Shown here one piece after another: positions 5,491 through 32,490 of a stretch of 37,669 nucleotides of DNA. Position 1 is the stretch's first letter; each line of letters begins with the position of its first letter. The stretch is taken from NCBI GenBank assembly GCA_023663825.1, contig JAMPGQ010000014.1, positions 1-37,669 on the forward strand. Reading direction: 5' to 3'. The DNA is from Anaeroplasma bactoclasticum (GTDB lineage: Bacteria > Bacillota_I > Bacilli_A > Acholeplasmatales > Anaeroplasmataceae). The notes under the pieces are model-generated. The model saw only the letters and a list, made by a program, of their open reading frames with translations, was not told the DNA's origin and searched no databases. The translations under genes were made by a program, and so were the position numbers.

Positions 5491-5988
5491 GTGGACTTAG
5501 AAAAAGAAGTAGAAAAATATAAACAAGGGAATCAACAATCCTTTGAAAAAATCTATAATGAAACAAAAGCGTTAGTTCGATTTGCAATCTATTCAAAAAT
5601 TCCAAATCGTTTTATCGTTGAAGATTTAATTCAAGATACCTATGTTAAAGTCAATCAAATGATTTCTAATTATCAAGCAAAAAACTTTCGTTCTTGGATT
5701 TATATAATAGCTAAGAATACAGCGCTAGATTATTTAAAAAAGAAAAAAGAATCTAGTATGGATGACTTAGATGTTTTACCTGATATGAAAAGTACACATC
5801 CCTATTTGTATTACGCAATTCGCCACCTTGAAGAAATAGAACGTGAGGTTTTCTTGATGAAGGTTTTGTGTGGCCACACAACGAAAAAAATTTCTGAAAT
5901 TTTAAATCTTAAACCTTCTAAAGTTAACGAGCACTACTATTTAGCTAAACAAAAATTAAGAAAATGTCTAGAGGATGAAGAACTATGA
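5491..5988 (+). CDS. ECF-type RNA polymerase sigma factor
   Basis: This 165-residue sigma-70 family protein has only regions 2 and 4. Region 2 includes VEDLIQDTYVKV and RSWIYIIAKNTALDYL (about residues 46-93). Region 4 is REVFLMKVLCGHTTKKISEI followed by a recognition helix near KPSKVNEHYYLAKQKL. GTG 5491 is chosen because GAGGTGGGG (5479-5487) is just upstream; GTG 5476 would place the Shine-Dalgarno inside the gene. It overlaps the following membrane beta-propeller gene by 4 bases, the usual arrangement for a sigma factor and its anti-sigma factor. The upstream gap (5427-5478) shows no clear ECF-type -35, so autoregulation is only a guess. Confidence 0.92.
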   Translation: MDLEKEVEKYKQGNQQSFEKIYNETKALVRFAIYSKIPNRFIVEDLIQDTYVKVNQMISNYQAKNFRSWIYIIAKNTALDYLKKKKESSMDDLDVLPDMKSTHPYLYYAIRHLEEIEREVFLMKVLCGHTTKKISEILNLKPSKVNEHYYLAKQKLRKCLEDEEL

Positions 5989-28435: not shown

Positions 28436-28511
28436 TTTAATGTGTTTATTTTTAAGAGCTTATTTAAGCGAAAAAAACATCAACTATTTCAATAAGAAGA
28501 TGGAGGTAAAT

Positions 28512-29765
28512 ATGAAAAAATTATTGATTTCAGTATTCGCTTTTGTTCTTGCGGTTCTTACTTTAATGAGTTCAGGAACATTTAAAGCCAACGCTAAAAC
28601 TTTTGAATTTGATGAAAATTCATCAAAAATTGTGCAATTGAGCAGTAACTTAACTGCGATAGAGAATAAGAAGCAAAGAGTCAATCTGCTTAATCTAATG
28701 CAATGCCATATTGATTATGTAATGGAAGATGATGGTCAAAGAAAAATAGAAAAAATTAAGGAATTGAAAGATTTCACGGGTTCTATATACACTTTATTTG
28801 AATTAAGTCCAGTTGGATATATCATTTATCACAATGATTCAGGTATCGTATTTGAATATGCTTCAAAAAGTGAATCTCCATATTTAGATTATAATGATAA
28901 TTTATATTATGGTGGAATGATGAATTATTTTTATAAAGAAAATAATACGTACTATAATACTCTTATCAAGTATGAAATTGTTCAAGAAGAAGAAAGTCAA
29001 TATTTGATTGATAATTCTAGTATCATATATAGTAAAAATCTAGAATCACCTGATCAAACTAATTTAGATTTTGTGAATGGTAAAACAGATATTTCAACAG
29101 TAGTCTCTTCATGGAAAAATGATGAAGAAATAATGCTATTAGCAACTAGCGATCAACCTAATATATCTATGGAGGAATTTTTCAAGCCTCTTATATATAG
29201 AGATGAAATGGGATATATGAATGGTGGGGTATGCGGCTATATAGCTGCAAATTTGGTTTTAGCCTATAATACATTTGCCTATGATGATTCTTTAGTTTCA
29301 GATACTTACTTGGATAAGTCAAATAAAACTATAAGAGGAGATTTACTTACAAGAGAGTTAATTCATCAACACGGAAAAGATCCAGATTCAAGTAATATAT
29401 CAGGTACAACAGCAGACAGTATGGGAGATTGTGTTAGAAATTATTTGAAAAATGTTAGTAGCGGAACTAAATCATGGAAAGTAACAACTTGGTGGGGTAA
29501 AATAAATTCTACAGGTGCTATCAAGAAAAATCAGCCACCAATTTTGTTTGGTAATATGAAGTATCCTGAAAGTAGTAGTAATGTTTCTGAAACTATGAAT
29601 AATTTTACATTTGGAGATGGAGCGCATGGAAGTGGAAATCATGCAGTTGTTGCTTATGGTTACACAAATTCCAAATATCGAGTACATTATGGCTGGTCTG
29701 GTTATTCGGATGTTATTCTTAGTTATAATGCCATTGGTGGAACTATGATTTTAAGTTATTTTTAA
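28512..29765 (+). CDS. secreted papain-fold cysteine peptidase with prodomain
   Basis: A 417-residue pre-pro-protein. Signal peptide 1-28 (ending KANA) is followed by a prodomain of about 200 residues with a GSIYTLFELSPVGYIIYHND-type repeat strand. The peptidase domain has the nucleophile C241 in GGVCGYIAANLVLAY and H377 in GSGNHAVVAYGY. A YRVHYGWSGY segment follows, like the tryptophan-glycine strand after the His in papain-like C10/C39/C47 peptidases. The family cannot be fixed by eye. ATG 28512 with GGAGG is chosen over the in-frame ATG 28440, which would bury the signal peptide behind 24 residues. A lipoprotein gene follows, as inhibitors sometimes do. Confidence 0.8.
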   Translation: MKKLLISVFAFVLAVLTLMSSGTFKANAKTFEFDENSSKIVQLSSNLTAIENKKQRVNLLNLMQCHIDYVMEDDGQRKIEKIKELKDFTGSIYTLFELSPVGYIIYHNDSGIVFEYASKSESPYLDYNDNLYYGGMMNYFYKENNTYYNTLIKYEIVQEEESQYLIDNSSIIYSKNLESPDQTNLDFVNGKTDISTVVSSWKNDEEIMLLATSDQPNISMEEFFKPLIYRDEMGYMNGGVCGYIAANLVLAYNTFAYDDSLVSDTYLDKSNKTIRGDLLTRELIHQHGKDPDSSNISGTTADSMGDCVRNYLKNVSSGTKSWKVTTWWGKINSTGAIKKNQPPILFGNMKYPESSSNVSETMNNFTFGDGAHGSGNHAVVAYGYTNSKYRVHYGWSGYSDVILSYNAIGGTMILSYF

Positions 29766-30512: not shown

Positions 30513-31907
30513 ATGAAAACAAAAACTTCTATTAACAAATTATTATGTTTAGGCTTATGTGGATTTATTATTATAGATATTTTACTTAAGATTGGCTTGT
30601 ATGATTATAAAAGTGCCTCTTTTGCGTTTTTGACTTTTGGTTTGGAAATGTTAATTATCATTGTCATTTTCTATTATAATTTGATTAGTCAAGCTTCATA
30701 CGGAATTTTAAATAAAAAATCAAATTTAAAAGATAATAAAAGGAAATTGATAATCTCATTTGGTAGTGCTTTTCTTATTTCTTTTATTCTTTTTATTATT
30801 AGAGTGTGCCTTTATTATCGTATAAATGAATATGGAAATATTACTTGGATAATCCTCGGATGTGTTCATTTATTATTAATGCTAATTATAGGTGGTCTAT
30901 TATATTTAAGTTTCTATATTGCAAGTAAAAGATCCAATTTGAGTGAGAATGATTTTAATAAAAAAGAAGAAAAAATATGGAACAAATCATTATTGATTGC
31001 TGGTTTATTGATATTAATAGATATAATTATTAAGATAATAGTTTGGTCTATTTCTAAAGATGCAAGTAATCATTGGCATTTTTCGTATCTAAATAATGAA
31101 ATAGGTTATGCATTTTATCTATTTGGCATAGAAAGTATTATTTTGTTTTTATTTGGAGGCATAGTTCTTTTTAAAGAAATTAAAAAAAATATTATACGAG
31201 GTAGAAGTAAAATGAAAAAATTATTATTTATCATAGGATTAAGTTTTATTATAATTTTTGGAACTATTAATTTGACAGCTAATGCTGCTGAGGAAAATTC
31301 TAATTCAGAAGATGATGAAGTCGAGTTTATGAAACTAGAGAATTCTAGTAGCGAAAATGTAGATGAAACTTTTAGTGCTACAGATAATATCTTTGCTATA
31401 GAAGAAGACTCTACAAATGAACCTCAACTGTCACAGAGTTCTAGTAGTGGAAATGGTAATTGGGTTGATGGAGAATGGTGGTATAATATAATGGTCGATA
31501 GTAAAAATAGAGAACCGTCCTTACCTCACCCTGTCGACTATAGTGGTAGTGATTTATTAAAGTATGTAAAAAGAGGTGATTTAGTTTATGAAGGTACAGG
31601 TGCAGCAGGAATAACAGGTCATTCTGCAATTGTATATGATGTTTTATATGATTGGTATTATAGACAAGAATTTATTGTAATAATTGAAGCAGTATCTGAT
31701 GGAGTATGTTATGGTCTAATGACACCTAATAGATTTGCTAAAAAAGAAGTTGAAATATATAGATTAATGAATGCGAGTGAATCTCAAATTGATGGAGCAA
31801 TCGAATTTGCTAAATCCCAAATTGGAAAAAAAATATCTAATATGGCCTGGGAAGAATCCAGATTTTTCGAAAGAAAAATGGTATTGTTCAGAACTGGTAT
31901 GGGCTAG
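30513..31907 (+). CDS. six-helix membrane region fused to secreted YiiX-like papain-fold domain (frameshifted)
   Basis: The frame encodes 464 residues. Residues 1-233 contain six membrane helices in which helices 1-2 and 5-6 look duplicated (GFIIIDILLKIG and LLILIDIIIKII). At residue 234 (ATG 31212) a complete signal peptide begins (MKKLLFIIGLSFIIIF ... TANA) behind GAGGT (31199-31203). An acidic Ser-rich linker follows, then a permuted papain-fold (YiiX/NlpC-like) domain with GITGHSAIVYD, whose His is residue 370. At the A8 tract 31826-31833 the frame goes wrong, and the last 27 residues are not family-like. The Cys half continues in the +1 frame (next entry). Either two genes have fused, or the internal ATG is the real start of the secreted enzyme. 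Confidence 0.7.
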   Translation: MKTKTSINKLLCLGLCGFIIIDILLKIGLYDYKSASFAFLTFGLEMLIIIVIFYYNLISQASYGILNKKSNLKDNKRKLIISFGSAFLISFILFIIRVCLYYRINEYGNITWIILGCVHLLLMLIIGGLLYLSFYIASKRSNLSENDFNKKEEKIWNKSLLIAGLLILIDIIIKIIVWSISKDASNHWHFSYLNNEIGYAFYLFGIESIILFLFGGIVLFKEIKKNIIRGRSKMKKLLFIIGLSFIIIFGTINLTANAAEENSNSEDDEVEFMKLENSSSENVDETFSATDNIFAIEEDSTNEPQLSQSSSSGNGNWVDGEWWYNIMVDSKNREPSLPHPVDYSGSDLLKYVKRGDLVYEGTGAAGITGHSAIVYDVLYDWYYRQEFIVIIEAVSDGVCYGLMTPNRFAKKEVEIYRLMNASESQIDGAIEFAKSQIGKKISNMAWEESRFFERKMVLFRTGMG

Positions 31908-32490
31908 TTTCTATCATCAGGGAATCAATCTGGATCCTAGTCCAGATGATGTATTTATAATGCCAAGAACAATCAGGGACTATAAATATGCAAACATAAT
32001 TATGCATTACAAACATCCAACAAGTGTTTCAGCAACTAACTCCTCAAATCATATAATGACATGTAATTCCATTGAAACTATCTTTCCACATGAATATATT
32101 GAAAATAATTGTTGTTCAATAAAATGTAAGGTATGTAGCTACATTTTCTATACGCAACCACATATATATACTGATAAATATATTTCAAAAAGTTCTACAA
32201 TCCACTATGCTTATTGCCGATGTGGCAGTATGACAACAAAATCGCATAGTTTTTATACGGAAAACGATTTTAATATCTGCTCTCAATGTGGATATAAAAT
32301 CTCAGTAAATCATAACCATGAATATACGTATCATTATTTGCCTATTAGAAATTCATCAAGACACACTGCTTTTTGTAGTTGTGGAGATTCAAAAACCGAA
32401 CCATGTTTTGCTCAAGCAGTGGCAGGGCAAACAGCTAGTTCTTGTGTAAAATGTGGACAGGGCTTTAAGTCGTTAGTAATATATCCTTAA
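31771..32490 (+). pseudogene. C-terminal part of the YiiX-like protein, displaced by a frameshift, with Cys-rich tail
   Basis: This frame continues the preceding gene after a shift at A8 (31826-31833). Deleting one A joins AKSQIGKK to YLIWPGKNPDFSKEKWYCSE in one frame, restoring the catalytic Cys (codon 31885-31887) and SELVWASFYHQG. Residues upstream of the tract in this frame are not meaningful, and ATG 31771 has no Shine-Dalgarno. After the enzyme domain come about 130 residues with repeated CxxC or CxC pairs spaced by His-rich strands (KCKVCSY, YCRCGS, ICSQCGY, FCSCGD, SCVKCGQ), like zinc-ribbon or disulfide modules. Transcript slippage could still make the full protein. Confidence 0.75.

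What the first reader, a model, noticed from the sequence alone, without database searches (positions are those of the whole stretch)
31771..31907. A8 tract frameshift separates the catalytic His and Cys of a YiiX-like enzyme
The GHSAIVYD half and the KWYCSELVW half of one permuted papain-fold domain lie in different frames that cross at eight adenines (31826-31833). Removing one A restores a continuous domain. Poly-A tracts of this length are sites of sequencing error, of phase-variable length change, and of RNA polymerase slippage, which in AT-rich bacteria can make both truncated and full proteins from one gene.
Basis: partly seen in the sequence, partly recalled or inferred. Interest (0 to 1): 0.65.

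Follow-up and report, generated by a model that had tools for sequence, protein, structure and literature searches.

The report
One-base poly-A break in YiiX-like gene
In a gut Anaeroplasmataceae genome assembly, a secreted papain-like enzyme gene is split in two by one base too many in a run of eight A's; a conserved calcium pump that is whole in all ten sister species is broken in the same way here, so this looks like an ordinary slip of DNA copying or of the assembly rather than a built-in switch.

Summary
Frame 1 (ATG 31212, signal peptide, GD motif, His 31620, Glu 31686) and frame 2 (Tyr 31834, Cys 31885, Cys/His-rich tail to 32490) form one C92 (YaeF/YiiX) domain only when read across the A8 at 31826-31833. 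Joined, they score 41-43 bits against PF05708; neither half matches alone; the score peaks when the crossing is at the tract.

The interesting readings are not supported. (1) The event is not specific to this gene: a Ca2+-type P-type ATPase in the same assembly is split by an A8 where the nearest congener has A7, and it is one open frame in all ten congeners. A metallopeptidase is split at an A7, a transporter at a G6. A congener is broken at an A10 in a gene that is whole here. (2) Rescue by RNA polymerase slippage needs loss of one A or gain of two; a gain of one A stops after one residue. (3) 407 other coding A/T runs of 7 or more stay in frame, which excludes gross homopolymer miscalling.

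Best reading: a private one-base length change in an otherwise intact gene, by replication slippage or consensus error. Phase variation is possible but untestable here, since no second strain is held.

The parts
31212..31825 (+). Upstream part of the C92 gene: start codon with a GAGG ribosome site at 31198-31201, signal peptide (about 31212-31289), GD motif (31575-31580), catalytic His (31620-31622) and Glu (31686-31688)
   Evidence: family residues from PMC3142127
31826..31833 (+). Run of eight A at which the reading frame of the C92 domain changes
31834..31907 (+). As assembled, frame 1 reads 23 more residues after the tract and stops at 31905-31907
31834..32490 (+). Downstream part of the gene in frame 2: Tyr (31834-31836), catalytic Cys (31885-31887) in KWYCSELVW, then the Cys/His-rich tail; frame 2 is open from 31771
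32050..32487 (+). C-terminal Cys/His-rich tail (H-x-Y ... H-x3-C-x-C-G ... C-x2-C), shared with secreted proteases of other catalytic types in the genus and family
30513..31211 (+). Upstream membrane-protein frame, about six hydrophobic helices, with no stop of its own before ATG 31212; it runs in frame into the C92 gene
31182..31189 (+). A second run of eight A near the end of the membrane-protein frame; in the neighbouring register that frame would end at the TGA of ATGA 31212-31215. Possibly a second one-base change, possibly a true fusion; not resolved
   Evidence: no homologue covers this end

Best explanation
The A8 is a private one-base length change in a poly-A tract of a gene that was intact until recently, not a programmed recoding site. 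The gene encodes a secreted C92 (YaeF/YiiX-type) permuted papain-fold amidase with a Cys/His-rich tail. As assembled it gives a protein that ends 23 residues after the tract and so lacks the catalytic Tyr, the catalytic Cys and the tail, and would be inactive. The length change arose either by strand slippage in DNA replication in the sampled population or as a consensus error in the draft assembly. I put these about even, with a slight lean to real slippage because the other runs of this length are in frame. Shown: the two frames, the crossing at the tract, the clean halves, and the same kind of event in other genes. Inferred: that the ancestral gene was continuous, and the origin of the extra base.
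For: The joined halves give a C92 domain with all catalytic residues, and neither frame has further damage. The same assembly has a P-type ATPase split at an A8. It is a single open frame of 910-969 residues in all ten congeners, and the closest one, 91% identical over the first 150 residues, has A7 there; all 19 orthologues from genome contigs that the script could read at that site are in one frame. A HEYGHH metallopeptidase is split at an A7 while its relative in G002 is whole. A transporter is split at a G6 while its G003 orthologue is whole. Conversely G003 is broken at an A10 in a gene that is one frame here. Among 396 genes shared with G003, the only convincing frameshifts in this genome are the ATPase and the G6 transporter, both at homopolymers. 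The breaks are thus private, scattered and at homopolymers in both genomes. Antonov et al. read singleton frameshifted genes as sequencing error or indel mutation (PMC3711429).
Against: The C92 gene has no orthologue in the 160 order-level genomes searched, in genome contigs or in viral contigs, so its ancestral tract length is not known directly. The two genes of this genome that carry the Cys/His tail are both split at A runs, and all four broken genes are secreted or membrane proteins, which is what phase variation would also give.
Confidence: 0.8

Rival explanations
1. Phase variation: the A tract changes length at high frequency by slipped-strand mispairing in replication, switching a secreted enzyme on and off, as described for the p78 lipoprotein of Mycoplasma fermentans. 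Here the assembly caught the off state.
For: The target is a secreted protein. The second gene of this genome with the same tail is also split at an A tract, and in a congener (L006, G004) a tail-bearing gene is fragmented. Poly-A switching is documented in a Mollicute (Theiss and Wise 1997, cited in PMC3711429).
Against: An 8-nt tract is short. The same kind of break hits a Ca2+-type ATPase that is conserved in the whole genus. Tail-bearing genes of other congeners are mostly open. No strain pair is held to show switching, and the frame fault goes in opposite directions in the two tail-bearing genes.
Confidence: 0.17
2. Consensus error in the draft assembly: the organism has seven A's and an intact gene.
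For: The ATPase, conserved in all ten congeners, carries the same kind of extra A. The two halves are otherwise clean. The genome is a 98-contig draft.
Against: 407 other coding A/T runs of 7 or more in 1.18 Mb remain in frame, including 60 A8 runs, so the error rate at such runs is about 1% or less; a platform with homopolymer trouble would show more.
Confidence: 0.4
3. Genuine recent inactivation: a fixed replication-slippage insertion has made the gene a young pseudogene.
For: Homopolymers are mutational hot spots. The gene is absent from all congeners, so it is dispensable at genus level. Homopolymer frameshifts as early erosion are described in Blochmannia (PMC3017870).
Against: There is no second disabling change in about 425 codons, so the event must be very recent. 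The ATPase is an unlikely gene to lose.
Confidence: 0.33
4. Productive RNA polymerase slippage: RNA with one A fewer or two more is made from the A8 and yields both short and full proteins.
For: Such rescue is reported for endosymbiont poly-A frameshifts (PMC3017870), and slippage on eight A was inferred for Deinococcus IS elements (PMC1088944). It would also keep the ATPase working.
Against: The needed change is a deletion or a double insertion, whereas single insertions prevail (PMC5574713); a single insertion gives a stop after one residue. Selection against slippery runs appears at nine nucleotides in many genomes (PMC1088944). The breaks are not conserved between congeners. One broken gene has a G6, and in E. 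coli and Buchnera G and C runs were not prone to slippage (PMC5574713).
Confidence: 0.06
5. Programmed ribosomal frameshifting at the tract.
For: A-rich codons are slippery.
Against: Frame 2 is the +1 frame relative to frame 1 (codon starts at 31824 and 31825), so the usual -1 slip on A-AAA-AAA leads to the wrong frame. No conservation of the site can be shown, and no orthologue exists to test it.
Confidence: 0.02

Closest known systems
Peptidase_C92, YaeF/YiiX family of permuted papain-like amidases (PF05708)
   Same: GD motif, His, Glu, Tyr and Cys in permuted order; 41-43 bits when read across the tract
   Different: Split in two frames; signal peptide and a C-terminal Cys/His-rich tail; no orthologue found in the order
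Homopolymer frameshifts of Blochmannia and Buchnera (PMC3017870)
   Same: AT-rich genome; single indel in a poly-A run of an otherwise clean gene
   Different: Those tracts are often 9 nt or longer and some breaks are kept between species; here the break is private and the tract is 8
Poly-A phase variation of p78 in Mycoplasma fermentans (Theiss and Wise 1997, cited in PMC3711429)
   Same: Poly-A tract inside the gene of an exported protein, in a related class of bacteria
   Different: No evidence of switching here; a conserved ATPase is hit as well
dnaX slippage of Thermus thermophilus (A9; described in PMC1088944)
   Same: Run of A in a coding frame
   Different: There full length is the templated register and truncation is the slipped one, on nine A; here the templated register is the truncated one, on eight A

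Membership tests
YaeF/YiiX (C92) amidase, protein level | Profile match over the curated Pfam cut-off | tested here: met
   41 bits against a cut-off of 27 for the read-through protein; halves alone do not match
YaeF/YiiX (C92) amidase, protein level | GD motif and His, Glu, Tyr, Cys in permuted order | tested here: met
   31575, 31620, 31686, 31834 and 31885, but spread over two frames
YaeF/YiiX (C92) amidase, protein level | Permuted papain fold and amidase activity | not testable with these tools
Productive transcriptional slippage site | Tract long enough (about 9) and rescue in the favoured direction | tested here: not met
   Eight A; rescue needs -1 or +2; PMC1088944, PMC5574713
Productive transcriptional slippage site | Tract and frame change conserved in relatives | tested here: inconclusive
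   No orthologue of this gene; for the ATPase in the same assembly: not conserved
Phase-variable contingency locus | Tract length varies between strains or within a clone and changes expression | not testable with these tools
   One genome per species is held and there is a single copy in this genome
Phase-variable contingency locus | Gene encodes an exported product | tested here: met
   Signal-peptide-like N-terminus MKKLLFIIGLSFIIIFGTINLTANAA
Decayed pseudogene | More than one inactivating change | tested here: not met
   One frame change only; 218 codons open after it

The most novel reading that the evidence does not exclude
Secreted proteases that carry the Cys/His tail in this Anaeroplasmataceae genome form a small contingency set whose members are switched by short A7-A8 tracts lying between their active-site residues: His and Cys of the C92 enzyme, HEYGHH and the downstream EGW motif of the metallopeptidase.
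Probability: 0.1. Interest if true: 0.6.

Novelty: new member of a known kind. Interest (0 to 1): 0.2.

Why it matters
If it is only a slip, the lesson is practical: draft genomes of AT-rich gut bacteria carry roughly one homopolymer frameshift per few hundred genes, and each must be checked against relatives before it is called recoding or phase variation. If the tail-bearing secreted proteases really switch, it would be a contingency system in a little-studied gut lineage related to the mycoplasmas.

Tried and rejected
A first frame-change scan with a codon score missed the window site and was replaced by an open-frame scan. Most frame changes that scan listed at runs of 6 or more are ordinary gene boundaries, judged from three-frame views for some and from start-codon and ribosome-site context for the rest. 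I first took the split metallopeptidase as a sign of gene-specific switching; finding the split ATPase weakened that. Orthologues were sought in genome contigs, viral contigs, plasmids and 160 genomes of the order: only the tail has relatives. A second copy with another tract length in the same assembly was sought and not found. Structure prediction of the read-through was dropped because no single four-letter word expresses it.

Full report
WHAT IS THERE. The run 31826-31833 is eight A. Upstream of it a secreted protein starts at ATG 31212, with GAGG at 31198-31201 and a hydrophobic signal peptide ending in TANAA. It carries the GD motif, the catalytic His (31620) and the Glu (31686) of the YaeF/YiiX family. 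As assembled, its frame reads 23 residues past the tract and stops at 31907. The +1 frame continues from the tract for 218 codons to 32490. It begins with the family's Tyr (31834), then the catalytic Cys (31885, KWYCSELVW), then a Cys/His-rich tail. Xu et al. name exactly these four residues and the GD motif for the family (PMC3142127).

IS IT ONE DOMAIN. Neither half matches C92; the halves read together match PF05708 with 41 bits. Sliding the crossing point gives the best score, 43.2 bits, inside the tract, with 38 bits within about 20-45 nt on either side and a collapse at both ends.

IS IT SPECIAL TO THIS GENE. No. In 1.18 Mb of stretches of the same genome (57% of it), 407 coding A/T runs of 7 or more keep one frame. 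The frame changes judged real are few. One is the C92 gene (A8). One is a Ca2+-type P-type ATPase on contig C6 (A8 at 5889-5896). One is a HEYGHH metallopeptidase on C88 (A7), and one a multi-helix transporter on C40 (G6). The ATPase is single copy and one open frame in all ten congeners; the nearest, 91% identical over the compared part, has A7 where this genome has A8. The 19 orthologues from genome contigs that the script could read at the site are also whole. A comparison of 396 genes shared with G003 gave no convincing frameshift away from a homopolymer. The reverse also occurs: G003 is broken at an A10 in a gene that is one frame here. So both drafts carry private homopolymer breaks, each in a gene that is whole in relatives.

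WHICH MECHANISM. RNA polymerase slippage would need RNA with one A fewer or two more; the commoner single insertion gives a stop after one residue. In E. coli and Buchnera transcription insertions prevail in A/T runs, deletions seldom lie in them, and G/C runs do not slip (PMC5574713). Selection against slippery runs becomes visible at nine nucleotides in many genomes, although some organisms may slip on eight (PMC1088944). A usual -1 ribosomal slip leads to the wrong frame. This leaves a change in the DNA itself, or in the assembly. Antonov et al. treat singleton frameshifted genes as sequencing error or indel mutation (PMC3711429), which fits. I cannot separate the two without reads. The low rate of breaks in equally long runs speaks against a homopolymer-prone platform; the break in a genus-wide conserved ATPase speaks for error or for a very recent event.

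PHASE VARIATION. It remains open. Poly-A switching of an exported protein is known in Mycoplasma fermentans p78 (cited in PMC3711429). Both genes of this genome found to carry the tail are split at A runs, and all four broken genes are exported or membrane proteins. Against this stand the short tracts, the ATPase, the opposite direction of the fault in the two tail-bearing genes, and the intact tail-bearing genes of most congeners. No second strain of the species is held: the C92 gene has no orthologue in the order or in the contig collections, and this genome has one copy.

SURROUNDINGS. The membrane-protein frame upstream (30513-) has no stop before ATG 31212 and runs in frame into the C92 gene. 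It also contains an A8 (31182-31189), and in the neighbouring register it would end at the TGA of ATGA 31212-31215. That would be a second one-base change 644 nt away, or else a real membrane-anchored fusion; no homologue covers that end. The organism belongs to Anaeroplasmataceae: the nearest congener matches a MAG of that name.

VERDICT. Observation confirmed. Mechanism: most likely an ordinary private one-base length change at a poly-A tract. Gene-specific recoding is not supported, and phase variation is a minority possibility that reads could settle.

Noticed in passing
window 31182-31189: A second A8, near the end of the membrane-protein frame; that frame has no stop and runs in frame into the C92 gene, while in the neighbouring register it would end exactly at the ATGA of the next start codon.
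   Followed up: partly
L022:5889-5896 (G000:C6): Ca2+-type P-type ATPase split by an A8; one open frame in all ten congeners, with A7 in the nearest.
   Followed up: yes
L055:3407-3413 (G000:C88): Secreted HEYGHH metallopeptidase with the same Cys/His tail, split at an A7 between HEYGHH and the downstream EGW motif; its relative in G002 (L056:2250-4709) is whole.
   Followed up: yes
L104:11485-11490 (G000:C40): Multi-helix transporter split at a G6; its G003 orthologue is whole.
   Followed up: partly
L143:9346-9355 (G003): A10 with a frame change in a 750-residue gene whose counterpart in this genome (L098:8309-10393) is one frame.
   Followed up: yes
window 32050-32487; L004, L005, L007, L008, L009, L011, L055: A C-terminal Cys/His module (H-x-Y, then H-x3-C-x-C-G, then C-x2-C; eight invariant columns) is shared by secreted proteins of unrelated catalytic types: C92, C10-like, subtilase-like and HEYGH metallopeptidase. 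Pfam gives only a sub-threshold CDGSH match. It may be a surface-anchoring or metal-binding tail.
   Followed up: partly
window 28440-29765: Secreted protein with GGVCGYIAAN and GNHAVVAYGY motifs resembling C10 (streptopain-type) cysteine peptidases, intact and without the Cys/His tail; Pfam does not recognise it.
   Followed up: no
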